Shown here in pieces: positions 11,262-25,728 of a DNA stretch of 48,870 nt; within the stretch, counting starts at the first letter, position 1, and each line of letters opens with the position of its first letter. Source of the stretch: Marinobacter sp. Lineage in GTDB: Bacteria > Pseudomonadota > Gammaproteobacteria > Pseudomonadales > Oleiphilaceae. A model generated the notes under the pieces. The model was not told where the DNA came from. It did not search any database and saw nothing but the letters and a program-made list of their open reading frames with translations. The stretch covers positions 1-48,870 of the forward strand of contig JABURI010000032.1 of assembly GCA_014762755.1 (NCBI GenBank), written 5' to 3'. A program made the translations under genes and the position numbers.

Positions 11262-11381
11262 TGAACACCGTGCAAAATAAGAACAAAAATACTGGACACT
11301 GTTCAAAATAAGGTTATGATTCTGATCAGTGTCCATAAAATGATTCAAAGTATAACGGCTTCATTTTTTGAACGGTGTTCA
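11262..11381. promoter_or_regulatory. cluster of four 13-bp imperfect palindromes (consensus TGAAC-N3-GTTCA), putative TetR operators
   Basis: TGAACACCGTGCA 11262-11274; TGGACACTGTTCA 11293-11305; TGATCAGTGTCCA 11323-11335; TGAACGGTGTTCA 11369-11381, directly upstream of the TetR ATG at 11384. Confidence 0.8.
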
Positions 11382-11383
11382 TA

Positions 11384-11986
11384 ATGGCGAGAAGAAAGGA
11401 CCATACTCCTGAAGAGCTCACTGAGCTTGTCTTGAGCCAGGTTAATCGATTTCTACAGAGCGAGCCTGCCCACCAATTGAGTCTTCGCAAGTTAGCGAAG
11501 ATGGTTGGCTATTCACCCGGTACGCTGATCAATCTGTTTGGGAGCTACTCCAGACTCATTCTGGCGGCGAACGCTCAGACCCTCGATCAGATCGCGCAAC
11601 GGCTTGGCGACAGGATGGAGCAGGATGAGTCTGCTGAAACCAGGCTTCATCGCTTTGCCGAGGCCTACCTGGCGTTTGCTCAGGAGCATCCCCACCAATG
11701 GCGGCTCCTGTTTGAGCATCACCTGGATGAGGGCGAGGAGCTACCCCAGTGGCAGTGGTCTCGTATTGATCGCCTGTTCGACATGATCGAGCAGTGCCTC
11801 TATGAGCTCAATAAAAATTCGCGGGCAGAGGACCGTCACGAAGTCTCACGGACCATATGGGCGAGTGTTCATGGCATTTGCGCATTGTCGATTGATGACA
11901 AGCTGTTTGCCCGGACAACAGTCAGCGCTGAGAGCATGATCAGCGCTCTGTTAACCCATTTCTTATCTTCATGGAAGCAGTATTAA
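11384..11986 (+). CDS. TetR/AcrR family transcriptional regulator
   Basis: N-terminal HTH: HQLSLRKLAKMVGYSPGTLINLFGSYSRLI; alpha-helical C-terminal domain. Confidence 0.88.
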   Translation: MARRKDHTPEELTELVLSQVNRFLQSEPAHQLSLRKLAKMVGYSPGTLINLFGSYSRLILAANAQTLDQIAQRLGDRMEQDESAETRLHRFAEAYLAFAQEHPHQWRLLFEHHLDEGEELPQWQWSRIDRLFDMIEQCLYELNKNSRAEDRHEVSRTIWASVHGICALSIDDKLFARTTVSAESMISALLTHFLSSWKQY

Positions 11987-11998
11987 AGGACCTATCCC

Positions 11999-13885
11999 AT
12001 GTCAGAGCAACGCTCCCAGTTCCAACTACTCAGAAGCCGCCGTTTTTTGCCTTTCTTTGCCACTCAAGCCCTTGGCGCATTCAACGATAATCTATTCAAA
12101 AACGCCCTATTGCTGTTCATTGCGTTCGGTGGTTTGGCCGCCGCTGATCAAACGGCTTTGTACACGAACCTGGCGGCGGGCTTGTTCATTTTGCCGTTTT
12201 TTCTCTTCTCGCCCCTTGCCGGTCAGATTGCGGACAGGCAGGAGAAGTCTCGGTTAATCCGCCAGATAAAAGCACTGGAAGTGGTGATCATGGTGCTGGC
12301 TGCGAGTGCGCTTTTTTGGGGTAGCTCAATGCTGTTAATGGGGCTTCTCTTCTTGATGGGCCTGCAATCAGCGCTCTTTGGACCGGTTAAGTTTGCTCTT
12401 TTGCCTCAGCATTTAAAAGACGAGGAACTGGTAGGGGGAAATGCGCTTGTTGAAATGGGCACCTTCCTGGCCATCCTGGGCGGAACCATTCTTGCCGGTG
12501 TCCTTTTTGGACTGGAGCAGGCCAAGCCATGGATTGCTTCCGGGTTGGTTGTGCTCGCGGTCGGTGGTTACCTCGCCAGTCGTTTCATTCCTGAAGCCAG
12601 GCCCAATGATGCCGGGCTGGTGATTAACTGGAATCCGGTATCCGAAATTAGAAATACACTTCGTAAGGCCCGGCAATCCCGTTCAGTTTACCTTTCCATA
12701 CTGGCAATCAGTTGGTTCTGGTTCCTGGGGGCCAGCTACCTGACCCAGTTTCCCAACTTTGCCCGGGATTACCTGGGTGGGAACACCCAGATAGTGACGT
12801 TATTGCTGACCTTGTTTTCCCTGGGGGTTGCACTGGGATCACTGCTCTGTGAGCGGTTATCGGGTCACAAAATTGAGCTGGGTATTGTCCCGATTGGCTC
12901 CATTGGCATGAGCGTGTTTGGGATCGATCTGTTTTTTGCCTGTCAGCAACTCAGTGTCAGCCCGAACATGAGTGCCATGGAGTTCCTGTCGGCTTCAGAC
13001 AACTGGCGATTGATGTTCGACATCGCGATGATCAGCGCGTTCGGTGGCATTTACGTCGTGCCACTGCAAGCACTGATCCAGCATCGTAGTGACGATAAAA
13101 GCCGGGCACAGATCATCGCGGCGAATAATCTGCTGAACGCGTTTCTGATGGTGGCCAGCGCGGCTGTAAGCATTCTGTTACTGAGCGTTCTCGACATGAC
13201 ACTGCCGCAGTATTTCCTGCTGCTGGCTTCGGTGAATGTGGTCGTGGCTGCCTTTGTTTATCAGCAGGTCCCCGAGTTTGTGCTTCGGTTCTGTATCTGG
13301 ATGCTGAGTCACACCCTATACCGGGTGACTCATAAGGACCTGGAAAAGATCCCGGATGAGGGTGCGGCTGTTCTCGTATGCAATCACGTCAGCTATGTGG
13401 ATGCCTTGATTCTCGCGGGATGCCATCACCGTCCAATCCGCTTTGTCATGGATAAGAGCATCTCGGAAATGAAGGGACTCAAAACCTTCTTCAGAATGGC
13501 CAAGACCATACCGATCTGCTCGCCCAAGCAGGACGCTGAAACATATGAGATGGCCTTTAAACGAATCAAAATGGAACTCGATGAGGGGCATCTTGTGTGC
13601 ATCTTCCCGGAGGGCAAGCTGACCAAATCTGGGGAAATCGAAGAGTTCAAAGCGGGGATTGAACGCATCATCAAGGAAACTCCGGTCCCGGTTATTCCTA
13701 TGGCGCTGGAAGGCCTGTGGGGGAGCTTCTTCAGTCATAAAGGTGGCCATGCGTTGACCAAGAGGCCGAAGCGATTCTGGTCAAAGGTCCAGGTCATAGC
13801 GGGAGACGCGCTTCAACCGGAACATGTCACCGCACCAGGGTTGCAGTCCCGGGTTGAATCACTGCACCAGCAGCTCGCGTCCTGA
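11999..13885 (+). CDS. MFS transporter (LplT-like) fused to C-terminal PlsC 1-acylglycerol-3-phosphate acyltransferase domain
   Basis: MFS start FFATQALGAFNDNLFKNAL; acyltransferase motifs NHVSYVDA (NHxxxxD) and FPEGKLTKSG. Confidence 0.9.
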   Translation: MSEQRSQFQLLRSRRFLPFFATQALGAFNDNLFKNALLLFIAFGGLAAADQTALYTNLAAGLFILPFFLFSPLAGQIADRQEKSRLIRQIKALEVVIMVLAASALFWGSSMLLMGLLFLMGLQSALFGPVKFALLPQHLKDEELVGGNALVEMGTFLAILGGTILAGVLFGLEQAKPWIASGLVVLAVGGYLASRFIPEARPNDAGLVINWNPVSEIRNTLRKARQSRSVYLSILAISWFWFLGASYLTQFPNFARDYLGGNTQIVTLLLTLFSLGVALGSLLCERLSGHKIELGIVPIGSIGMSVFGIDLFFACQQLSVSPNMSAMEFLSASDNWRLMFDIAMISAFGGIYVVPLQALIQHRSDDKSRAQIIAANNLLNAFLMVASAAVSILLLSVLDMTLPQYFLLLASVNVVVAAFVYQQVPEFVLRFCIWMLSHTLYRVTHKDLEKIPDEGAAVLVCNHVSYVDALILAGCHHRPIRFVMDKSISEMKGLKTFFRMAKTIPICSPKQDAETYEMAFKRIKMELDEGHLVCIFPEGKLTKSGEIEEFKAGIERIIKETPVPVIPMALEGLWGSFFSHKGGHALTKRPKRFWSKVQVIAGDALQPEHVTAPGLQSRVESLHQQLAS

Positions 13886-14084: not shown

Positions 14085-15008
14085 CTATTTACCTGATTTC
14101 TTTTTCTTAAACAGCTTGCCGCCAAGCGCCACTAGACCGGCAATGATGAATACGCCAAACTTTTTCAGGAATAACAGGGCACCAGCGAAAACGCCGGCTT
14201 TTGCGGCGGCTTTTCCTGCGACAAGAGCACCCAGACCATACGCTGCGACGGTATCCATCTCCGGGTTGAAGTCGCTATAGCGATGTCCCTCATTAAATTG
14301 TGCCATGCCTAACACGGTGTCTAGATTGGCCTCAATTTCTGGTAATTGATTCATGTCAGCGATGAAGTTCAGAAGCAGAACGCCCTGTCGCCCGAGCACC
14401 CGGATGTTGTAGTTCAGGATATGATCTGGATCCTCACCGAACTGGAGTTCCTGCGCCCAATAGAGCTTGTGCGATGCCTGGTTGTAGTGAGGGGCTGACG
14501 CCCACCCCACAAGGTCGATGGGGGCGTAGCCGGCTTCCACCCGTTCCGGGTTTACGTCGCGTGTATCTTCCTGCATCTGTTCAAGCAGTTCGTCGTAGTC
14601 AATGTCGGAGGCATTCTCGTCCGAAACATATCCATCTTCTTCATACTCGATGGTGACTCCCCAGGAAGCTTCATCCAGTGGTGCAAATTCCGAAGGGAAC
14701 AGCATTCCTAGCGTTTCGCCGCCGGGTGGGTTGCCCCAGGCTTCTACCAGAACCCGCTGGGTGTCTTCGGGGGAAAGATAGTAGAAGTTCTCCGGAACAT
14801 TCAGGGTAGCAACCCCATTGGGGAGGCGGATCTCTCCCCGCTGGTAGTTCAGGCTGTTTACAAATTGCTCGGCCCACTGCTGGTATTCCTGTTCTTGGTC
14901 CATCGCCTCGGTTTCGGCCGCGGCTGCCGCATCGGACTGCTCGTTGGCCAGGCTGAACTGACTGCAAATGGATAGCAAAATAGATGTAAGTAATATAACC
15001 TTTTTCAT
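14085..15008 (-). CDS. DUF2167-like membrane protein
   Basis: signal peptide MKKVILLTSILLSICSQFSLA; GVATLNVPENFYYLSPEDTQRVLVEAWGNPPG; C-terminal TM segment followed by lysines. Confidence 0.8.
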   Translation of the reverse strand: MKKVILLTSILLSICSQFSLANEQSDAAAAAETEAMDQEQEYQQWAEQFVNSLNYQRGEIRLPNGVATLNVPENFYYLSPEDTQRVLVEAWGNPPGGETLGMLFPSEFAPLDEASWGVTIEYEEDGYVSDENASDIDYDELLEQMQEDTRDVNPERVEAGYAPIDLVGWASAPHYNQASHKLYWAQELQFGEDPDHILNYNIRVLGRQGVLLLNFIADMNQLPEIEANLDTVLGMAQFNEGHRYSDFNPEMDTVAAYGLGALVAGKAAAKAGVFAGALLFLKKFGVFIIAGLVALGGKLFKKKKSGK

Positions 15009-15093
15009 GGTATTTCCTTGTGGCTTGGCGAATTTCCCCTTAGAGGGAAAAGACAGACTGCGGCGGTGCATCACGCCCGACGGTTAAGCAAAA

Positions 15094-15786
15094 TCAGCGA
15101 ATGGCACTTCTCAGGATCATGAGCCATCGCCCCAGCCGCAGAATGTCCATTAATGCCGCGGCTACATAGGTGAATGCGGCTGCTCTTAGGACGCTGTTGA
15201 CTGCGTCATACTGGTGCTTCCGGATGTATTCTCCTGTCACCAGAATTGGCATGGCTTTATTGAAACTGGCATCCCATTCCATCGGCAAGATGACGAACTG
15301 GATCAGCACCGAGGCCAACATTGCCAGCACACCGATCAAAGCCGTTAGCAGAGCCACATGGGGCACTTTGAAGATGGCGACGACTAAGGGAATAGCAAAC
15401 AGGAATCCGACAGCAATCTTCTGGACTATCATGGCAGCCGGCAAATACCGTTGGCGTAACGTCGTGATTGCTTCCTCGCGATGGTATTGAATGGCATGGC
15501 CCACTTCGTGGGCCGCCACCGCGACCGCTGTAATAGAGCGGCCATCAAATACACTACGTGAAAGGCGAACGGCTTTTTCAGAAGGCGAGTAGTGATCACC
15601 TTCATCAGTCAACTCCACAACAACGTCCGAGAGTTCGAACCGGTTGATGAGATGTTGGGCGAGTTCACCGCCCGTACCGGGCATACCTGCATCTGGCGCG
15701 CCATGTTTTTTCATGACATGTCGAATCCAGAGGTGGGGCCCATAAACAAGGAGCAGAATCAGAACTGAGGTAATAACAAACAGCAT
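15094..15786 (-). CDS. membrane zinc metallopeptidase (YugP / Zn_peptidase_2 type)
   Basis: AAHEVGHAIQYH (HExxH) with flanking TM helices. Confidence 0.88.
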   Translation of the reverse strand: MLFVITSVLILLLVYGPHLWIRHVMKKHGAPDAGMPGTGGELAQHLINRFELSDVVVELTDEGDHYSPSEKAVRLSRSVFDGRSITAVAVAAHEVGHAIQYHREEAITTLRQRYLPAAMIVQKIAVGFLFAIPLVVAIFKVPHVALLTALIGVLAMLASVLIQFVILPMEWDASFNKAMPILVTGEYIRKHQYDAVNSVLRAAAFTYVAAALMDILRLGRWLMILRSAIR

Positions 15787-15948
15787 ATCCTTTGCTTCAA
15801 GTAAAATATTTGTTCTGAGTATACCAACCGTATTTCTTCAAAAGGCCAATCACGTCTCAGTATTGAAGCGAGTCGAAGACAATTAATTGACAAACCTCTC
15901 AGGCCCTCAGCATCGCGCAATAGGTCAGCGAATTACCCAGACGGGACA

Positions 15949-18900
15949 CTAGTTCTCCCTGATTTCGACCTTCTCCAGGAGCTGTTTCTCGATACTCAAA
16001 AGCTGATTTTTGATCTCGGACATCGTCCTGTAGGTCCTGAGATCGAGACCGGTCTTCCCACGCAGGACCTTGATCAGTGGTCCGATTGAGCGTTCATAGA
16101 CTTCTGCCAGCGAAACCAGTGCTTCTCTCAGGCCATCGGGCCCCTGGACGGTCACCTGCGGGGACACCTCAAGGCGGCCAACAGATTCCTGGATACCTTC
16201 GATCAAGGGTGTCCAGTCCACGCTTCTGCCTTGATCAGACCGGGATGATTCGGCGATTGCGGAGCCCAGGGTCTTCAGCTGCTCACCGATGCTGACCAGC
16301 TGACGGACCACTTTCTCGCCGGTATCACCGTCGCCGCCTGCCTGTATTCGGGCTCGGTAAGCCGATTTGATTTCGGCCCAGCGTTCGGCTTCAGGCCCGG
16401 CCAGGGTTCCCCGGAGCTCCTTGAGTTTCAGCAGGTTTTCCTCGGCACCCTGGGTGAGTAATTGCGCTTCACCCTGGTAGTGATCGTCGATCAGCCGCTC
16501 CAACTCGTCGTCGGTCATTACCGGGGTGACCTTTTCAGCCAGCTTGTTCATGTTCCGGTAGCTGCCCTGTAGCTTAAAAGGTGGCTCGGTCCGGTAGGCA
16601 TCGTCCTGGCCGCTGGAGGCGATGTAGGTTTCGTTGACCCGGAGGATTACGTCTCGCACTCTGAGGAGGCGTTTGAGGACAGCAACGATTTCTTCACGCT
16701 CTGCTGCGCTGTAGTCGTGTTCGAAATCCGCAGAGTTAACTTCCTTGCCTGCGGCGATATCGGCAAACCGGTAAAAATCGCCCATGCCACGTGAGGCGAG
16801 GGGGGCTGTCACGGGATTGGAGCTCATGCTGTTTTCGAGATAGGACAGAGCAAAAATGTCCTCCATGCCGCTGAGCTGATCGCCGAGGTTCCGGACATCA
16901 GCACGGTTGGCCAGCATGTCCGGAATCTGGAAGACTTCGCCGGATTCGGTGTACGGGTTGCCGCCCATGCAGATGGCAAAGCGTTTGCCACGCATGTCGT
17001 AGGTCCTGGAGCGGCCGTTCCAGATACCCTCGATTCGGCGGGTTCCGTCACATAAGGATATGAATTTCTGAAGAAATTCCTCGTGAGTATGCTGGATATC
17101 GTCCAGATAGAGCATGACGTTGTTGCCCATCTCCAGAGCCAGGTTGAGCTTTACCAGTTCTGTCCTGGCGGTGGAGTGTGGGGCCTTTTCAGGGTCCAGG
17201 GATGTTACATCGTGGCCAAGTGACGGGCAGTTGATCTTCATGAAGATCAGGCCAAGACGGCTTGCGACATACTCCATGAGGGTGGTTTTGCCGTAGCCCG
17301 GCGGCGAAATCATGATGAGGAGGCCCATCAGGTCGGTGCGCCGGTCGTCACCGACGGTCCCCATCTGCTTGGCCAGGTTGTCACCCACCAGCGGAAGGTA
17401 GACTTGCGAGATCAGCTTGTTCCGTACGAATGAGGTCAGCGGCCTTGCCGTGAATTCTTCGACCCGTAGCCGGTCCTTCTGTTCTTCCAGAATTTCATGG
17501 CGCACTTTCTGGAGCGCTTCCCAACGTGGCAGACGATCATTGATGTGGCGGCGTAACCTTGTCTCGAATTCATCAAGCGCCAGGGACAGGCTCTGGTTCT
17601 CCAATCTTTGGTGGCGGCCCAGAAGCCCCCCGATGGCAAACGTGAGTTCTACAGCCCTCGGCTCGAACCGGGTCTCTTCGCAGAGGGTATTGGCGATCAA
17701 AAGGAGCGCGGCTTCCGGGGCGAAATGGACCGCCAGATCATTGTCAGTCTGGCGGGCAAATGCAGCCAGCCAGGCCAGTGCTGTATGCCAGAGGCTCTGG
17801 GCACGGCCCTTTGATTGATCGAGAACCTGATCGAGCGCAGGCTGCTGGTCCTGGTCTGCGATGTACTGCTTAAAACGGGCATGAAGGTCATATCCCGTCG
17901 AGGATACCTCCACGATTCCCGGTGTGGTTGCCAGGGTCTGACAAAGATAATCCGCTGCTTGCTCAAGCGCCCATGCCTCGAAATCCAGATGATTGTGCTC
18001 GGAAAAATCAATCATATCCCTGAGGAGTGTTGCCTGGGCTCGCTGCACGAGATCGGATGTCCGCATGAGGGATTGCAGCACACCCGCACTCATACACTCC
18101 GCGGTTCTGTGTTTGCGATAGTCGATGTCCTGAAGAAACCAGAACAGCAGGGCCGCGCCACGTACAGCCGGTGCGAATCTCAATAAGCCAGCGTCGGCTT
18201 TGGCCGGGGCCAGCTTCTCTATGATCCTGGCAGCGTCGTGGTCGTGGATGCCCTTTTCGTACCCGTCCCGGTAACGGGGGCCTGAAAACCGCCGTACCGC
18301 CTCGTCCAGGGCTTCCGGATCAGAGAGGTCCGGCATCTGGATCTTGCCGGTTTCGACGGCTTCCATAAACCGGTAGGCAAGGTATTCGCCTTTGTACACA
18401 TCCGGGGCCTGTGAGGGGGTGTGCAGATCCCAGCAATCTTCCAGTTGGTTCAGCCTTGAGTCCCGAACCGTCTCGAAAAATTGTGTGCCTGAGATGTGCA
18501 GGCGCAAGCCCTCCTGTTGGGGCACCAGCGTCAGCGCCGGCTCTTGTTGGTTGACGGAGAAACGGTGACGCGGCCCCAACCTGATCACCGATCCACCGTC
18601 CTCGTACATGTCCGCTTTATCGCGGACCGACCGCTGCGCATTGTCCTGCGCTGCTTTCAGCTGGCCCTCCAGATCATCTGCCTCGAGAGGTGCGTCCAAC
18701 CCCCGCAACCTTCCGGCCAGGTCACGGACTTTGGCCACCATGGCATCCCCGGCAAAAAAAGTATGCACTTGTTGAACGTCGGTGAACTGGTCGGTTCGCT
18801 TGGTCAGGCTGTTGAGGATACGCTGGCCGGCATCCTTCAGGGAGGAAGCCTTCCTTTGTCGTTCCTGGGTCAGTTGCTGACGACGGGCTTCAATGGTTTC

Positions 18901-21162
18901 CTGAGTGGTTTCCCGTTGCTCGATCAGTGTAGACAGAAATTCGTCATACTCACCGAACTGGCTTTCGATTTCCTGCAACTGGTTGAGCATTCGTGCCAGC
19001 AAATCATCACATTCCGAGGGAGCGCTGACGGTATGAACCCCGTTAGCCAGGCTCTGTTCATAGAGTCGTAACTTGGACGCGAACTGAACCTTGGCTTCCT
19101 CCCGGCCACAGTCGCTCAGCTTGATTTCTGCCCGGGATCGGTCCTGGTTCACCCGGGAATACAGGGAGGACAGGTTATCCGCGATGGCTGCCTGCTGTTC
19201 GGTGTCGTCGGTTGCCAGGGAGGACAGCAGTTCCTGGACAAAATCCAGCCCGGCAGTGATCTCCTGGTACTCGTTGACCAGTTCCTTGAGTTCTCGACGA
19301 TCGTCGGATTCCTCAACCCGCTGGCGCAGCGTATCGACCTGCTCTGTATACCTCGTCAGGGCCTCGGGCCGTGCGAGGAAATCGAGCGTCCGGTCGGCGA
19401 GTTTGTCCACGGCACTTGCCGCCCGGTCATCGAGAGCATCGAGGCGGGCCCGGTCAATGTATCGGCGTTCGGCGAGCGACCGAATCAGCCCACGGTGATC
19501 TTGCAGTTTTTTCAGGTGCGTCACGAACTGATGCGGTTCCCGCCATGATTCCGGGCGGGTTTCCTGTATGAGGAGCGAGAGCGTCTTTTCAGCATCGGTT
19601 AACGACTGGTTGGATTGCTCCCGAACAACCTCGACTTTTTCGTATTCGTCGATGACCAGTTCGGCGGTTGAGCGAACCTGGTGAAGAGCCGAATTGATTC
19701 CCGAGAAATAGGGCTCATGCAGCCAGAATCGCTGGTCGATCAGTTTATCGATACGCTTGATCAGGCTGTCGAAGTGCCGAACGGCGGCTTCCTCCGTGTC
19801 AGCCAGTGTGACCACTGAGTAGAGGTCGGCAACGCCACTGACGAGCTCCGGATTACCGATGCGGCCGAGCTCGGAATCATCGGACGTTGTCTTGTCCGCA
19901 TAGTTGGCCTGTGATTCGAACGGCGTCTGCCATAGCCGGATGGTGTGGACCTGGGAAGGCTTGTCATCAGCAGTAAAGACCGCCAGTTCCCCGGTGTCGA
20001 AGAGGGCATAGCCGTGACCCGTAATGGGAGGCGCGGTGGTCCGGGAAATCAGGTTGTAACGAATCAGCGTGACGGCACCGGATTCGGGTGCGTAGAAGAT
20101 TATGAGTACATCCTCTCCGTTGGGCGCTTCCACCATGCGCTTGAACCGAAGACCTTCGGGCACGTCGACGGTTTTTAGATCATCGCTGAAAAGATAGATC
20201 CCTCCCGGAAAGACGATGCCGTGGTCTTCGGGTAACGACCGGACCGAACCGGAGAGCGCATCCAGACGATGAAGCGACTTCTCCATCGGGTTGAACACGT
20301 AGTACCGGGTGACCGGTTCGTTGTAAGGGCGGATACGGACCAGATAGATGTCACCCCGGCGTGCATACTCAAACGTTCCATCACTGAGCGACTGGCTCGC
20401 GGCTTCGACAGGGTCCTCGAAGATCCCTTGCCCGGTAGTTGTATTGTTCTCCACCTTGAAGGTGATTGCCCCGCCGGTGTTGTCGACGAACAGTCGGTCC
20501 TCGATGGAGTAGTGTGGGGAGACCCCCTGGACCACGTTCTCCCTGGTCAACCGGATCCACTCGAAGTCGAACCGTTCGGGTAAACGGAAATCTTCGGCAC
20601 CACGGTCATCGATATAAGACCGGACCGAGCCATCGTTATTAAGGGCCCAACGAAATACCTTCAGATGATCGCCCCGGTCACCAACCTGAAAAACCATCAA
20701 CAGACGGCCATCGCTCGCGACCAGTTGAATGAGTTTCGCTTCCTTGTGGAAGCGGTGCAGGGAGGCAAAGTCGGCCTTAAAACTTTCAGTTTGCAGAAAC
20801 GAGCCATGGAGACTGGACTGCGTGATTTCCCATCCTCCGTTTTCCGCCTCAAGGCGGTAGAGGCTGAAGATATCCTCGAGTTCAACAGTCTGCTTGAGTC
20901 CGTGCTCTGTGTGGAAGCCGAATAGCAGAAACTCACCGACCCGGACAACATCCCGAGCGACACAGTTGTGGGGCGTTCTGGCGCGAACCCGGCCCAGAAC
21001 TTCCATGGTTGAGGCTCCGAATTTCGCCTCCCGCTGCTCGTTGAGGGACTTCACTGCGTCCCTCAGAGTTTTGGCGTTGTCGGTCAACCGCCTTTTCAGG
21101 GTGGCAAAGGTGCCGCCTTCCCGGACGATAGCCTCGGTGGTCAGGGTTTCTGCAGATCCCAT
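15949..21162 (-). CDS. giant AAA ATPase of the type commonly annotated 'DNA repair ATPase' (~1737 aa): propeller-like N-terminus, coiled-coil middle, C-terminal AAA+ module
   Basis: Walker A ISPPGYGKTT (17281-17310), Walker B NVMLYLDDIQH (~17098-17130), sensor-like CMGGNPYTESG; extended heptad-rich centre. Confidence 0.82.
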   Translation of the reverse strand: MGSAETLTTEAIVREGGTFATLKRRLTDNAKTLRDAVKSLNEQREAKFGASTMEVLGRVRARTPHNCVARDVVRVGEFLLFGFHTEHGLKQTVELEDIFSLYRLEAENGGWEITQSSLHGSFLQTESFKADFASLHRFHKEAKLIQLVASDGRLLMVFQVGDRGDHLKVFRWALNNDGSVRSYIDDRGAEDFRLPERFDFEWIRLTRENVVQGVSPHYSIEDRLFVDNTGGAITFKVENNTTTGQGIFEDPVEAASQSLSDGTFEYARRGDIYLVRIRPYNEPVTRYYVFNPMEKSLHRLDALSGSVRSLPEDHGIVFPGGIYLFSDDLKTVDVPEGLRFKRMVEAPNGEDVLIIFYAPESGAVTLIRYNLISRTTAPPITGHGYALFDTGELAVFTADDKPSQVHTIRLWQTPFESQANYADKTTSDDSELGRIGNPELVSGVADLYSVVTLADTEEAAVRHFDSLIKRIDKLIDQRFWLHEPYFSGINSALHQVRSTAELVIDEYEKVEVVREQSNQSLTDAEKTLSLLIQETRPESWREPHQFVTHLKKLQDHRGLIRSLAERRYIDRARLDALDDRAASAVDKLADRTLDFLARPEALTRYTEQVDTLRQRVEESDDRRELKELVNEYQEITAGLDFVQELLSSLATDDTEQQAAIADNLSSLYSRVNQDRSRAEIKLSDCGREEAKVQFASKLRLYEQSLANGVHTVSAPSECDDLLARMLNQLQEIESQFGEYDEFLSTLIEQRETTQETIEARRQQLTQERQRKASSLKDAGQRILNSLTKRTDQFTDVQQVHTFFAGDAMVAKVRDLAGRLRGLDAPLEADDLEGQLKAAQDNAQRSVRDKADMYEDGGSVIRLGPRHRFSVNQQEPALTLVPQQEGLRLHISGTQFFETVRDSRLNQLEDCWDLHTPSQAPDVYKGEYLAYRFMEAVETGKIQMPDLSDPEALDEAVRRFSGPRYRDGYEKGIHDHDAARIIEKLAPAKADAGLLRFAPAVRGAALLFWFLQDIDYRKHRTAECMSAGVLQSLMRTSDLVQRAQATLLRDMIDFSEHNHLDFEAWALEQAADYLCQTLATTPGIVEVSSTGYDLHARFKQYIADQDQQPALDQVLDQSKGRAQSLWHTALAWLAAFARQTDNDLAVHFAPEAALLLIANTLCEETRFEPRAVELTFAIGGLLGRHQRLENQSLSLALDEFETRLRRHINDRLPRWEALQKVRHEILEEQKDRLRVEEFTARPLTSFVRNKLISQVYLPLVGDNLAKQMGTVGDDRRTDLMGLLIMISPPGYGKTTLMEYVASRLGLIFMKINCPSLGHDVTSLDPEKAPHSTARTELVKLNLALEMGNNVMLYLDDIQHTHEEFLQKFISLCDGTRRIEGIWNGRSRTYDMRGKRFAICMGGNPYTESGEVFQIPDMLANRADVRNLGDQLSGMEDIFALSYLENSMSSNPVTAPLASRGMGDFYRFADIAAGKEVNSADFEHDYSAAEREEIVAVLKRLLRVRDVILRVNETYIASSGQDDAYRTEPPFKLQGSYRNMNKLAEKVTPVMTDDELERLIDDHYQGEAQLLTQGAEENLLKLKELRGTLAGPEAERWAEIKSAYRARIQAGGDGDTGEKVVRQLVSIGEQLKTLGSAIAESSRSDQGRSVDWTPLIEGIQESVGRLEVSPQVTVQGPDGLREALVSLAEVYERSIGPLIKVLRGKTGLDLRTYRTMSEIKNQLLSIEKQLLEKVEIREN

Positions 21163-21201
21163 CACTTACTGTCCTTGCTTGATTCAATCTGGCTTGAGAA
21201 C

Positions 21202-21226
21202 CGGTAGGGCGACTCACGCCCTACCG
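21202..21226. other. perfect intercistronic hairpin between flotillin and giant ATPase genes
   Basis: CGGTAGGGCG-ACTCA-CGCCCTACCG, 10-bp stem, 5-nt loop, no U-tract. Confidence 0.7.
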
Positions 21227-21238
21227 CGAGGGTGATGT

Positions 21239-23143
21239 TTAGTCACGGGTATCGGCAGATTCACTGTCCGATTCGATCTTCCCTCTGGTTCCGCCATTCA
21301 TGATTTTTTCCATGATGCTGCTGACGAAGGGCGTCATGCTGCTGGCGTTTTTCATGAAATGGTCTGCGGCACGGCCGTAACCGATGCCCTGGGCAACCTT
21401 GTTGAAGACGTCGCCATCGCCACCGATGAATTCGAGCTTGGCGTTGGCCAATGCATCGCCCATCGCTTTCGCCTGGGCCTCGCTGATACGGACATTGGCC
21501 TCGATACGGGAAAGGGTTTCTTCCTTGTGGATGTCGAGATTACGGTTCATTACCTCAAACTCACGACTGGACTCGTCCATGCGTTCGTAAGCCTCTGCTT
21601 TCTTGGTAATTCCCTCGGCCTCCGCTTCGGCCATCTTCAGTGCAGCAGCGGCCTTGGCGTTACCCAGCTCCTCTTCACCCTTGGCGCGGGCCAGCAGCAT
21701 ATCTTCTTCATTCTTCGCCCGGGATTCACCTTCCTGCCGCTCGGCTTTTGCAGCTTCGGCGCGGGCATAAGCCTCCGCTTCGGCCTCTTTGCGCGAGGCA
21801 GCTGCATTGGCTTCGCGAATCTGGGCCTGGGCAAGGCCGTGGGAGGCTGCCTTGGCTTTCTCGCCCTCGGCCAACTCGATCATTGCGGCTTTGCGCAACT
21901 GAGCAGACTCCTGCTCGGCCTTGGCACCCTCAACCTGTTCAACTCGCCCTTCCTCGGCTTTCGCTTCCGCCGAAATAACCACGGTTTCTTTATTTCTTCT
22001 GGCCTCTTCGCGGTTTCGCATGGTGAGGATGTTTTCTTCCTCTTCAGCGACGCGCGACTCCACCTGAATCCGCTCGGCCTGAATGTCGGCGATTTCCTTC
22101 TGTTTGACCTCCAGAACCTTGTCTTTCTCGATGCGCTCTTCCTCGACCCGGCGCTCACGATTGATGTGTTCGAGTTCCGTGGCTGACTGGATAGCGACCT
22201 CTTCAACAGCAATGGCTTTTTCCCGTGCCTTCGCCGCTAATTGCTTCTCTCGCTCACGCTCTTCTTCAGCAATGTCGATGGCCTTCTGTGCCTCGGTTTT
22301 GGCCAGTTCGGATTGTTGACGTTGCTCTTCGTGCGCTTTGTTTTTGCGAGCGGTTTCCCTGGAATCGATCTCGGCGATCTCGCGATTGGTCCGGGCCTCG
22401 GTTTCGGACTGGGCTTTACGGAGCGCTTCCTTTTGCTCAAAGGCAGTGGTGTCGCGCTCGGCGATGGCCACTTCGGCGTCACGCTCAAGGTTGTTCGTTG
22501 CCACCCGGTTACGTTCAGTGATTTCCTTGATCCGCTTGATACCATCTGAATCCATGATGTTATAGGGATCAAGCTGGTCGACCGGGGTTTGCTCAAGGTA
22601 GTCAATGGCGACGTCTTCCAGGACATAACCGTTCAGGTCATCGCCAATGAGCTTGACGATTTCCTGGCGGAACTCCTGACGTTTTTCGAAGAGTTCGACG
22701 AAATTGAATTTTTTGCCGACGGTCTTCAGCGCTTCGGAGAATTTCGCATTGAACAGCTCATCGACTGCCTCTTTATCCGAGGCTCGGGCGACGCCGACAG
22801 ACTTGGCCACGCGGAGGACGTCGTTCGGGGTTTCATTAACGCGCAGGTACAGGCCTAGAGAAATGTCGGCGCGATAGTTGTCCTTACAGATCAGACCATT
22901 TTTCCCCCGCCGGTCGATTTGCAGTGGAATGACGCTGATGCGCATTCTCTCCGCCCGGTGAATGACCGGCAGAACCATGGCCCCGGTAAAATGCACCCCG
23001 GGAGTTTTGGCCAGGGTGTTCACGATCAGGGCTTCGCCCTGGTCAACTTTGCGGTAGAACGCTTTGAACAAAAGCAGAATGCCCAGCAACGTGACGAATG
23101 CCACACCGATGAACATCATCACCGGCAGAATCCACTCCAACAT
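21239..23143 (-). CDS. yqiK: flotillin-like SPFH protein, YqiK family
   Basis: N-terminal TM helix, SPFH domain (AFYRKVDQGEALIVNTLAKTPGVHFTGAMVLPVIHRAERM), long Ala/Glu coiled-coil flotillin domain. Confidence 0.9.
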   Translation of the reverse strand: MLEWILPVMMFIGVAFVTLLGILLLFKAFYRKVDQGEALIVNTLAKTPGVHFTGAMVLPVIHRAERMRISVIPLQIDRRGKNGLICKDNYRADISLGLYLRVNETPNDVLRVAKSVGVARASDKEAVDELFNAKFSEALKTVGKKFNFVELFEKRQEFRQEIVKLIGDDLNGYVLEDVAIDYLEQTPVDQLDPYNIMDSDGIKRIKEITERNRVATNNLERDAEVAIAERDTTAFEQKEALRKAQSETEARTNREIAEIDSRETARKNKAHEEQRQQSELAKTEAQKAIDIAEEEREREKQLAAKAREKAIAVEEVAIQSATELEHINRERRVEEERIEKDKVLEVKQKEIADIQAERIQVESRVAEEEENILTMRNREEARRNKETVVISAEAKAEEGRVEQVEGAKAEQESAQLRKAAMIELAEGEKAKAASHGLAQAQIREANAAASRKEAEAEAYARAEAAKAERQEGESRAKNEEDMLLARAKGEEELGNAKAAAALKMAEAEAEGITKKAEAYERMDESSREFEVMNRNLDIHKEETLSRIEANVRISEAQAKAMGDALANAKLEFIGGDGDVFNKVAQGIGYGRAADHFMKNASSMTPFVSSIMEKIMNGGTRGKIESDSESADTRD

Positions 23144-23165
23144 TGATTACTCCTTTTCTTGGTGA

Positions 23166-23795
23166 TTACCGGGTTACACCGGTGATGAAGTCGGCCTCGG
23201 GAATTACCTGATAGGCCTTGAGCTCGCGGTGATACTTGATCACCACCGCTTTTTCGCCAGGCTGGATGGATTGGTTGCTCCTGGCCTGGAGGCGCACGTG
23301 GGCGCCATTGACGAAACAGTCGATCTGGCCCGCGTCCGGGGAAATGGCGTAGGCCACGGTTCCCGTGATACCGAGAACATCCCGGGACGAGGCTTTCGTG
23401 GATTTGAATAGTCCTCTTAGGGGTTTTATCAGAAGCGCAGCGAGCTTCGCACCGATAACGAGGGAAAGGAGGAAAAGAAGAGTGCCCGCGACCAGGGAGA
23501 GCAGGCCGGGAGAGAGCATGGCCAGGAGTAGCAGATCGCCGAAGTAGGAGGCCATCCATCCGCTGAGGCTGAATGCAGTCAGTACTACAGGCAGAGGAAC
23601 ACCGGTTAAGCCCAGGGTGGCCATAAGACCGGTCAGTCCACCGCCCGCTGCTTCGGTCAGGTCCAGATCAATGTCAAAGACATCAAAGTCAGCGATACCG
23701 ACCATGGCGACAACCCAATACAACAGGCTGAACAATAGTACGGCCGTCCAGATTAGGGTGGGGAAACCAAACGCAATCTGAAGAAACGTATTCAC
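23166..23795 (-). CDS. yqiJ: YqiJ-like inner-membrane protein with C-terminal OB-fold (NfeD-like)
   Basis: several TM helices, C-terminal GITGTVAYAISPDAGQIDCFVNGAHVRLQARS OB-fold-like strand pattern; immediately upstream of yqiK in the same operon. Confidence 0.8.
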   Translation of the reverse strand: MNTFLQIAFGFPTLIWTAVLLFSLLYWVVAMVGIADFDVFDIDLDLTEAAGGGLTGLMATLGLTGVPLPVVLTAFSLSGWMASYFGDLLLLAMLSPGLLSLVAGTLLFLLSLVIGAKLAALLIKPLRGLFKSTKASSRDVLGITGTVAYAISPDAGQIDCFVNGAHVRLQARSNQSIQPGEKAVVIKYHRELKAYQVIPEADFITGVTR

Positions 23796-24179
23796 GGGTG
23801 CAGAGGCCTTTTTCTATCCATGAAACAACACGCATTGAACGACAGCGACCGACTCCGTTCGGTAAGGATCTCGTGGCATGTTTCTTTAATTCAGTAACAT
23901 ACGATTGTTTTAAGCGCTGAGGATCCACCATCGGGCACTATGCAGTAATTGGAACACTATTAAATCTGGTCAATTTTCACAAAAAAAAATTCCCGCAGTG
24001 AGAAGAAAGGCGCAAAAAAGATCCGACAAATGATTGATGCTCTTGGTCAACCGTTTTTAAATGCGGCAGGCAAGCTTCCAACCAATTGCAATGCCTCAAG
24101 AAAATGGTTAGCTTGAATTCCGAATCAGCGACAGGCCGGAACCGCCGCTACGCTAACCCCGTTGTAAAGGAACCATTGC

Positions 24180-25370
24180 ATGGACGATCTCACGCACCAC
24201 ACCAAGCTTCATTCATCAGAACTTACTGACCATTCAACGGATGAGAAGAAGGAAAAACTGCCAGTTTTTCAAAGTAAGGCTGCTGAGGTGCTGGAGCGAC
24301 TGGTGGCAGTAGGTGAGCGCGACCTCAGTGAAAGAAGGGAAGTAATACTTGAGGTTGAAGGCCTGGGTAAAGATGCGGAATACAAACTGTCCAAAGCCAG
24401 CGCCTTGCTAAAACGCCCCGTGCACGAATTGGCGCAGGCCGCTGATGAGGGCAGCGCAATCGATGAGGCGCTTCTGTCGCTCCAGGGGAAGGTGCGCGAG
24501 GTAAACCCTAATGAAGTCGATTTTTCAATGGGCTTCGTCCGTCGCCTCTTATCCAGATTGCCGTTCGTCGGTACTCCGGTCTCCCGGTGGGCTGCCAGGT
24601 ATCAGGCTGTGAGTCGGGTCATCGAGGATATTGCCAATTCGCTTCGTCTGGGCATGCAACAACTCTCCCAGGACAACGTGGATCTGGCAACTGATCGTGA
24701 CCGGATGCGCGAACTCACCTTTGAGCTTGAGGACTATGTAGCCTTTGGCCAACTCCTTGACGCTGAACTCGAGGCGCAGATTGAGAAAGAGGCGGATGAC
24801 AGTAAAAGAAAGTTCCTCGAAGAGGAGGTCCTGTTCGCGCTACGCCAGAGGATCATGGACCTGCAGCAGCGTCTCGCTGTAAATCAGCAGGGCGTTCAGT
24901 CGGCTGACTTGCTGATCAGCAACAATAAGGAATTGATTCGCGGTATAAAAAGGGCTCTGGATGTCACCATCGAAGCTCTCGCCATTGCTTCAAATATTGC
25001 GATGGGCCTCCAGCGGCAGAAAAAACAGCTGGAAGCATTGAATGCTTCGAATGAAACCGCATCAGAACTTTTGTATCAGACATCCCAGAGGCTGCAGGAA
25101 CAAGGCGTCGAGATTCATAAGCAGGCCTCTCAGGCGTCGCTGGATATGGAGAAACTCAAGGCGACGTTTGCAAACAGCCTTGCCGCCTGGGATGCGATCA
25201 ATAGCTTCAGGCGCGAAGCGCTGCCTAATATGAAGCAGACCATTACGGAACTTGAAAGTCTTTCCGAGCAACAGGCACAACTTACCGAGAAAATGGAACG
25301 TGGTAGCCAGATGCGGCATCATTTTGCGGGCATGTTTTCCCTGGAGTCAGGCAAGACCGACGCCAAGTAG
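24180..25370 (+). CDS. TelA family toxic-anion-resistance-like protein
   Basis: LQQRLAVNQQGVQSADLLISNNKELIRGIKRALDVTIEALAIASNIAMGL typical of TelA; long helical protein. Confidence 0.88.
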   Translation: MDDLTHHTKLHSSELTDHSTDEKKEKLPVFQSKAAEVLERLVAVGERDLSERREVILEVEGLGKDAEYKLSKASALLKRPVHELAQAADEGSAIDEALLSLQGKVREVNPNEVDFSMGFVRRLLSRLPFVGTPVSRWAARYQAVSRVIEDIANSLRLGMQQLSQDNVDLATDRDRMRELTFELEDYVAFGQLLDAELEAQIEKEADDSKRKFLEEEVLFALRQRIMDLQQRLAVNQQGVQSADLLISNNKELIRGIKRALDVTIEALAIASNIAMGLQRQKKQLEALNASNETASELLYQTSQRLQEQGVEIHKQASQASLDMEKLKATFANSLAAWDAINSFRREALPNMKQTITELESLSEQQAQLTEKMERGSQMRHHFAGMFSLESGKTDAK

Positions 25371-25437: not shown

Positions 25438-25479
25438 TTTCATGAAACTGACTGCAGTGAGTAGGAAGTTCGTGTGAAT
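25438..25479 (+). promoter_or_regulatory. copy 2 of 42-bp promoter-like repeat, upstream of GDCCVxC gene
   Basis: TTTCATGAAACTGACTGCAGTGAGTAGGAAGTTCGTGTGAAT; contains near-palindrome ACTGACTGCAGTGAGT; ~22 bp before the ATG at 25501. Confidence 0.65.
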
Positions 25480-25500
25480 TGGATGCAACAGGAGGCAGTT

Positions 25501-25728
25501 ATGGCCGAAGTGATTCTCGAGTCCACCATCACCTGTCCGGAGTGTGGTTATCAAAAAACGGAAGTGATGCCGACGAACGCCTGTCAATATTTCTATGAGT
25601 GCGAGGCGTGCCAAGCGTTGTTAAAACCGAAGTCTGGCGACTGCTGTGTTTTCTGCTCGTACGGCACAGTTCCCTGTCCTCCCATTCAGCAGGGGATTGG
25701 GTGTTGCGCCTCAAGTGAAAGCAAGTAA
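25501..25728 (+). CDS. GDCCVxC-domain small cysteine-rich protein
   Basis: CPECGYQK...CEACQALLKPKSGDCCVFCSYGTVPCPP; AGGAGG ribosome-binding site. Confidence 0.85.
   Translation: MAEVILESTITCPECGYQKTEVMPTNACQYFYECEACQALLKPKSGDCCVFCSYGTVPCPPIQQGIGCCASSESK

What the first reader, a model, noticed from the sequence alone, without database searches (positions are those of the whole stretch)
14085..25370. DUF2167 / Zn-peptidase / giant AAA ATPase / flotillin / YqiJ / TelA locus: candidate membrane-stress or conflict system
About 11 kb in which nearly every gene points to membrane integrity or stress. A minus-strand operon-like set carries yqiJ, a yqiK flotillin, a ~1737-aa AAA ATPase, a membrane Zn-metallopeptidase and a DUF2167 protein. 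A TelA gene is divergent across an AT-rich ~385-bp spacer. YqiJ-YqiK pairing is known and TelA belongs to the tellurite/toxic-anion resistance families; the joint function with the giant ATPase is not established to my knowledge. Hypothesis: flotillin microdomains recruit the ATPase as a large remodelling scaffold.
Basis: partly seen in the sequence, partly recalled or inferred. Interest (0 to 1): 0.72.

Follow-up and report, generated by a model that had tools for sequence, protein, structure and literature searches.

The report
Flotillin–ATPase membrane-stress operon using TelA
A marine bacterium carries a known but untested membrane-stress operon (a flotillin raft protein, its small membrane partner and a giant ATPase) in which the usual membrane-repair protein PspA has been replaced by TelA, a widespread "tellurite resistance" protein of unknown action, which suggests that TelA does a PspA-like job.

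Summary
The six genes are real and intact, but only four belong together. Across 97 other loci with the giant DUF3686/AAA+ ATPase, YqiJ–flotillin–ATPase is a near-invariant trio. DUF2167 and the Zn-peptidase accompany it in none, so they are bystanders. The trio is not new: Ravi et al. 2024 (PMC11237479) described it as a PspA-linked envelope-stress operon, usually beside DUF2170/CesT-Tir–PspA. That holds for most loci here too.

What I could not find described is TelA. In this Marinobacter and two close relatives, TelA sits in the divergent slot where other Marinobacter have PspA–DUF2170, and no PspA passes the cut-off anywhere in these genomes. In Lysobacteraceae, TelA from a different, remote subfamily lies just downstream of the ATPase (the two sets are not one clade, AU p=0.0004). 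There all 18 TelA genomes also have the ATPase, and the linked PspA is diverged or lost. Other gammaproteobacterial TelA genes often neighbour a different SPFH gene (Band_7_1 family).

Best reading: a PSP-type flotillin/AAA+ membrane-maintenance system in which TelA takes PspA's place. The genetics is well supported; the mechanism is inferred. No structural kinship of TelA with PspA was found.

The parts
23166..23795 (-). YqiJ-like 3-TM / NfeD-like membrane partner (209 aa)
   Evidence: Profile match to E. coli YqiJ; adjacent to flotillin in about 90 of 97 loci
21239..23143 (-). YqiK-type flotillin / SPFH protein (634 aa), divergent subfamily
   Evidence: 28% identity to E. coli YqiK; Band_7 hits in sister members
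15949..21165 (-). Giant ATPase (1738 aa): DUF3686 34-479, DUF7902 601-682, AAA+ about 1240-1600
   Evidence: Pfam; Walker A PPGYGKTT 1288-1295, Walker B YLDD 1353-1356, sensor-1 N1403 and R1421 invariant; MoxR-like fold
24180..25370 (+). TelA (396 aa), in the slot where other Marinobacter have RHH-PspA-DUF2170
   Evidence: PF05816 7.9e-58; neighbourhood comparison; only TelA over cut-off among 58 related genomes
23796..24179 (.). Divergent intergenic region between yqiJ and telA (384 bp, 45% GC)
   Evidence: no sigma-70-like site found; not conserved with relatives
15094..15786 (-). Zn_peptidase_2 (bystander; not part of the system)
   Evidence: PF04298; absent from every other locus held
14085..15008 (-). 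DUF2167 membrane protein (bystander; not part of the system)
   Evidence: PF09935; in G020 and G042 it lies elsewhere in the genome

Best explanation
A TelA variant of the PSP-associated flotillin/YqiJ/giant-AAA+ membrane-maintenance operon. Shown: the conserved trio, TelA's place, its independent recruitment in two lineages, and its occurrence with loss or divergence of PspA. Inferred mechanism: the flotillin, with YqiJ, forms an oligomeric SPFH assembly on the inner membrane. It recruits a soluble, largely helical effector to damaged membrane, PspA in most hosts and TelA here. The MoxR-like AAA+ ring, with its long N-terminal propeller/coiled-coil arm, uses ATP to remodel or disassemble that effector or a membrane complex held by the flotillin.
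For: Trio near-invariant in 97 loci, DUF2170 and PspA beside it in about 51-55. TelA in 11 of 98 loci; of these only one also has a PspA over threshold (Fisher p=0.001, not corrected for kinship). All 10 related genomes with the ATPase have PspA against 11 of 47 without it; the window's genome has the ATPase, no PspA, and the only TelA over cut-off. Eight TelA-type genomes have no PspA over cut-off; of 27 ATPase genomes with neither gene at the locus, 25 have PspA elsewhere. Lysobacteraceae, 199 genomes: 18 of 18 TelA genomes have the ATPase (p=1e-13), 14 adjacent. TelA-linked PspA scores 25-77 bits (one at 141) against 129-185 without TelA. Two TelA origins: AU p=0.0004. TelA next to a Band_7_1 SPFH gene in 7 of 11 XpaC-TelA loci. 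B. subtilis sigma-W regulon holds pspA-ydjGHI, yuaF-floT and xpaC-yaaN(TelA) (PMC3498285); the SPFH protein YdjI recruits PspA (PMC8581546).
Against: Only two independent TelA recruitments, so the large p-values count related genomes. In 11 of 14 Lysobacteraceae loci with linked TelA, PspA persists in diverged form, so TelA may be an addition there rather than a swap. PspA is uncommon in Marinobacter without the operon, so its absence in the trio's genomes is partly base rate. The TelA model is poor (pLDDT 67) and has no significant structural match to PspA/ESCRT-III. The window's genome is 82% complete. No experiment bears on this ATPase.
Confidence: 0.6

Rival explanations
1. TelA is an extra adaptor of the flotillin/ATPase machine, working with or upstream of PspA, and does not replace PspA's function.
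For: In Lysobacteraceae TelA coexists with a diverged linked PspA in 11 of 14 loci and with a normal one in Lysobacter prati L116; four further TelA genes lie elsewhere in PspA-positive ATPase genomes.
Against: Stenotrophomonas, Luteimonas and the Marinobacter trio have TelA and no PspA over cut-off; PspA divergence follows TelA presence.
Confidence: 0.25
2. TelA is an independent tellurite/toxic-anion resistance gene that happens to sit beside the operon.
For: Divergent transcription and a separate spacer here; most TelA genes in other Gammaproteobacteria are not near this ATPase.
Against: Two unrelated TelA subfamilies converged on the same operon; TelA over cut-off is absent from the 57 other related genomes; 18 of 18 Lysobacteraceae TelA genomes carry the ATPase.
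Confidence: 0.1
3. DNA repair: the giant protein acts on DNA, as its Pfam/NCBI name 'ATPase involved in DNA repair' implies.
For: Annotation only; AAA+ fold matches include RuvB and MCM.
Against: Near-invariant linkage to membrane proteins and PspA; best fold matches are MoxR proteins NorQ/CbbQ.
Confidence: 0.04
4. The reader's six-gene system including DUF2167 and Zn-peptidase.
For: Same strand, short gaps and no clear terminator between them in this genome.
Against: Zero of 97 other ATPase loci have either gene; DUF2167 in two relatives lies in unrelated places.
Confidence: 0.03

Closest known systems
PspA–CesT/Tir–band-7/flotillin–AAA+–YqiJ operon of Ravi et al. 2024 (PMC11237479)
   Same: Same flotillin, YqiJ and novel AAA+ with N-terminal coiled-coil/propeller; same partners (DUF2170, PspA, phospholipase D) in relatives
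   Different: No PspA or CesT/Tir here; TelA in their place. TelA is not mentioned in that paper
B. subtilis pspA-ydjGHI, SPFH protein YdjI recruiting PspA (PMC8581546)
   Same: An SPFH protein plus membrane partner recruits a soluble helical effector under envelope stress
   Different: YdjI is a different kind of SPFH protein; no giant ATPase; effector is PspA
E. coli yqiJ-yqiK and Shewanella SO1376-SO1377 (PMC1468410)
   Same: Homologous NfeD-like/flotillin pair
   Different: No ATPase, PspA or TelA reported with the pair; 28% identity to YqiK
XpaC–TelA operons (B. subtilis xpaC-yaaN; Listeria lmo1966-lmo1967)
   Same: TelA family; envelope-stress regulation and nisin tolerance reported (PMC3498285, PMC12791056)
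   Different: No XpaC partner here; different TelA subfamily; no giant ATPase
MoxR AAA+ ATPases (NorQ, CbbQ)
   Same: Closest AAA+ fold; pre-sensor-1 beta-hairpin in the model
   Different: Fused to DUF3686 and a long helical region; no vWA partner gene at the locus

Membership tests
Ravi-type flotillin/YqiJ/AAA+ operon | Adjacent YqiJ-like 3TM protein, band-7/flotillin protein and AAA+ with N-terminal DUF3686/coiled-coil | tested here: met
   The beta-propeller nature of DUF3686 was not tested and is taken from PMC11237479
Ravi-type flotillin/YqiJ/AAA+ operon | CesT/Tir (DUF2170)–PspA dyad in the full form of the operon | tested here: not met
   Absent at the locus; no PspA found in the 82%-complete genome. 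Abbreviated forms without the dyad are described in PMC11237479
SPFH/flotillin (YqiK, SPFH2) | N-terminal TM, SPFH domain, coiled coil | tested here: met
   Homology to E. coli YqiK over residues 6-445; Band_7 in 5 of 46 sister proteins; the window protein itself has no Pfam hit; TM and coiled coil not computed separately
TelA family (PF05816) | Score above the family cut-off (30 bits) | tested here: met
   196.5 bits
TelA family (PF05816) | XpaC or other small helical partner gene upstream, seen in most TelA loci examined | tested here: not met
   t1/t2 partners in 21 of 23 other loci; none at the window's TelA
ESCRT-III/PspA superfamily (TelA as a member) | Sequence or fold match to PspA/Vipp1 | tested here: not met
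   No relevant PDB sequence match; Foldseek has no match below E=0.001; the model is weak, so kinship is not disproved
MoxR-like / pre-sensor-1 beta-hairpin AAA+ | Beta-hairpin between the Walker-B helix and the sensor-1 strand | tested here: met
   Model strands 378-383/386-391 before 397-403; top hits NorQ and CbbQ, TM only about 0.4-0.6
Classical AAA (Vps4-like) ATPase | No pre-sensor-1 hairpin; best fold match to the Vps4/p97 group | tested here: not met
   weak sequence matches to p97/Rix7 cover only about 33-67 residues around the P-loop
Anti-phage defence system | Matches to known defence families or a defence-island context | tested here: not met
   PADLOC: only marginal coiled-coil hits to the ATPase, E>=0.0015; no phage homologue
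Functional PSP-type stress system | Induction by and protection from envelope stress | not testable with these tools
   Needs experiment

The most novel reading that the evidence does not exclude
TelA proteins, known only as 'toxic anion resistance' factors, are functional counterparts of PspA/ESCRT-III: helical membrane effectors recruited by SPFH proteins. They have replaced PspA at least twice, independently, as the effector of a flotillin/MoxR-like-AAA+ membrane-repair machine.
Probability: 0.3. Interest if true: 0.75.

Novelty: new variant of a known kind. Interest (0 to 1): 0.52.

Why it matters
TelA is widespread in bacteria and occurs in archaea, yet its action is unknown. Convergent capture by a PspA-type operon, with divergence or loss of PspA, gives a concrete testable role: SPFH-recruited membrane effector. 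It also supplies natural PspA-less hosts in which to study the flotillin/giant-ATPase machine, and it would reframe 'tellurite resistance' as membrane protection.

Tried and rejected
Six-gene unit with DUF2167 and Zn-peptidase: rejected, 0 of 97 loci. Defence/conflict: rejected. Simple swap of PspA for TelA in every case: softened after one search showed diverged PspA retained in 11 of 14 Lysobacteraceae loci with linked TelA. TelA as a structural relative of PspA: no support. Vps4-like AAA: replaced by MoxR-like after the model. Shared regulatory motif in the yqiJ-telA spacer: none found. PDB sequence searches with flotillin and YqiJ profiles gave nothing. A first gene-calling pass by ORF length gave false antisense ORFs and was redone with codon scoring.

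Full report
WHAT IS THERE. The window lies in a Marinobacter genome: the closest ATPase relatives are M. oulmenensis and M. confluentis (75-77% identity). Minus strand, in order of transcription: YqiJ-like 23166-23795, flotillin 21239-23143, 1738-aa ATPase 15949-21165, Zn_peptidase_2 15094-15786, DUF2167 14085-about 15008. TelA is divergent at 24180-25370. The spacer is 384 bp and 45% GC. The flotillin and YqiJ assignments rest on homology to E. coli YqiK and YqiJ, since Pfam does not recognise the window's own proteins.

CONSERVED CORE. I read 97 other loci with the DUF3686 ATPase: 80 named genomes and 17 from related and phylum-wide genomes. YqiJ-flotillin-ATPase is near-invariant. DUF2170 and PspA (identified) lie beside it in about 51-55 loci. 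The same trio occurs on megaplasmids of Pseudomonas (pQBR103, with YjfI-PspA) and Hymenobacter and, with shorter forms, in Deinococcus and Streptomyces. This is the operon described by Ravi et al. 2024 (PMC11237479), who proposed membrane-associated assembly with PspA. DUF2167 and the Zn-peptidase occur in none of the 97 loci; in two relatives DUF2167 sits elsewhere, without the peptidase. They are bystanders, although co-transcription in this strain cannot be excluded.

TELA. In the window and its two nearest relatives TelA occupies the divergent position that holds RHH-PspA-DUF2170 in other Marinobacter. Among 58 related genomes (the window's own included) TelA over cut-off is found only here. 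In Lysobacteraceae, TelA lies downstream of the ATPase after a roughly 250-aa helical protein. The two TelA sets share only 18-19% identity, fall in different subfamilies, and holding them together is rejected (AU p=0.0004). The ATPase tree also places the TelA loci in separate parts. So TelA was recruited at least twice.

PSPA. All 10 related genomes with the ATPase have PspA, against 11 of 47 without it (p=8e-6). The exception is the window's genome, which has TelA and no PspA found. Of 27 ATPase genomes with neither gene at the locus, 25 have PspA elsewhere; the two without are metagenome bins, which may be incomplete. Eight TelA-type genomes, including a complete Stenotrophomonas genome, have no PspA over cut-off. 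In 199 Lysobacteraceae genomes, all 18 with TelA have the ATPase, 14 adjacent (p=1e-13). There the picture is graded: normal PspA without TelA (129-185 bits), diverged PspA with TelA (25-77 bits in 11 loci, one at 141), and none in Stenotrophomonas and the Luteimonas group. Related genomes are not independent, so these p-values describe the pattern, not independent events.

WIDER SUPPORT. In 7 of 11 XpaC-TelA loci of other Gammaproteobacteria the gene after TelA is a Band_7_1 (PF13421) SPFH protein. In B. subtilis the SPFH protein YdjI recruits PspA to the membrane (PMC8581546). That YdjI belongs to the same SPFH family as these Band_7_1 proteins is from my own knowledge and was not tested here. 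The B. subtilis sigma-W regulon contains pspA-ydjGHI, yuaF-floT and xpaC-yaaN (TelA) together (PMC3498285). Listeria TelA disruption raises nisin susceptibility 4-fold and tellurite susceptibility 2-fold (cited in PMC12791056). On Vibrio plasmids TelA sits in an ABC/OmpA/vWA operon resembling one that PMC11237479 reports for PspA/Snf7.

THE ATPASE. Walker A, Walker B (YLDD), sensor-1 N1403 and R1421 are invariant. The AAA+ model (pLDDT 83) has a beta-hairpin before sensor 1, and its best fold matches are the MoxR proteins NorQ and CbbQ, so it is MoxR-like rather than Vps4-like. TM-scores are modest. The model of TelA is helical and weak (pLDDT 67), with long helices at 132-203 and 207-288 and no significant fold match.

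MECHANISM. Inferred: flotillin plus YqiJ form the membrane platform; TelA (or PspA) is the recruited effector; the AAA+ supplies ATP-driven remodelling. Steps shown: gene content, linkage, convergence, correlation with PspA. Steps not shown: any physical interaction, localisation, or phenotype of this ATPase. I did not find TelA linked to this operon in the papers searched, but that library is partial.

VERDICT. A new variant of a known, uncharacterised system. The core finding is not new; TelA in the place of PspA is the part worth following.

Noticed in passing
L132, L169, L174, L176, L177, L179, L181: XpaC(PF10112)-TelA followed by a Band_7_1 SPFH gene (mostly with GYF_2) in other Gammaproteobacteria: a second TelA-SPFH association unrelated to the giant ATPase.
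   Followed up: partly
L161, L163 (Vibrio plasmids), L168, L170: TelA in an operon with ABC transporter, OmpA-domain, vWA and substrate-binding proteins, resembling the PspA/Snf7 operon type of PMC11237479.
   Followed up: partly
L022 (G036): The giant ATPase reading frame is broken into several pieces in one Marinobacter genome; pseudogene or assembly errors.
   Followed up: no
window 11375-13885 (+): TetR-type regulator followed by an MFS transporter–acyltransferase fusion, possibly LplT-Aas-like phospholipid repair, convergent with the DUF2167 gene.
   Followed up: no
window 25474-25728 (+): GDCCVxC-domain (seleno)protein family member directly after telA on the same strand; absent from the other loci.
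   Followed up: partly
L117 (pQBR103 83446-106548): Plasmid-borne super-operon YjfI-PspA-rhomboid-DUF2491-DUF350-DUF1190-glutathionylspermidine synthase-YqiJ-flotillin-ATPase.
   Followed up: no
L099, L100, L105, L106, L108, L112, L114, L116: A small, uncharacterised helical protein (about 230-290 aa, no Pfam family) lies between the ATPase and TelA in Lysobacteraceae.
   Followed up: partly
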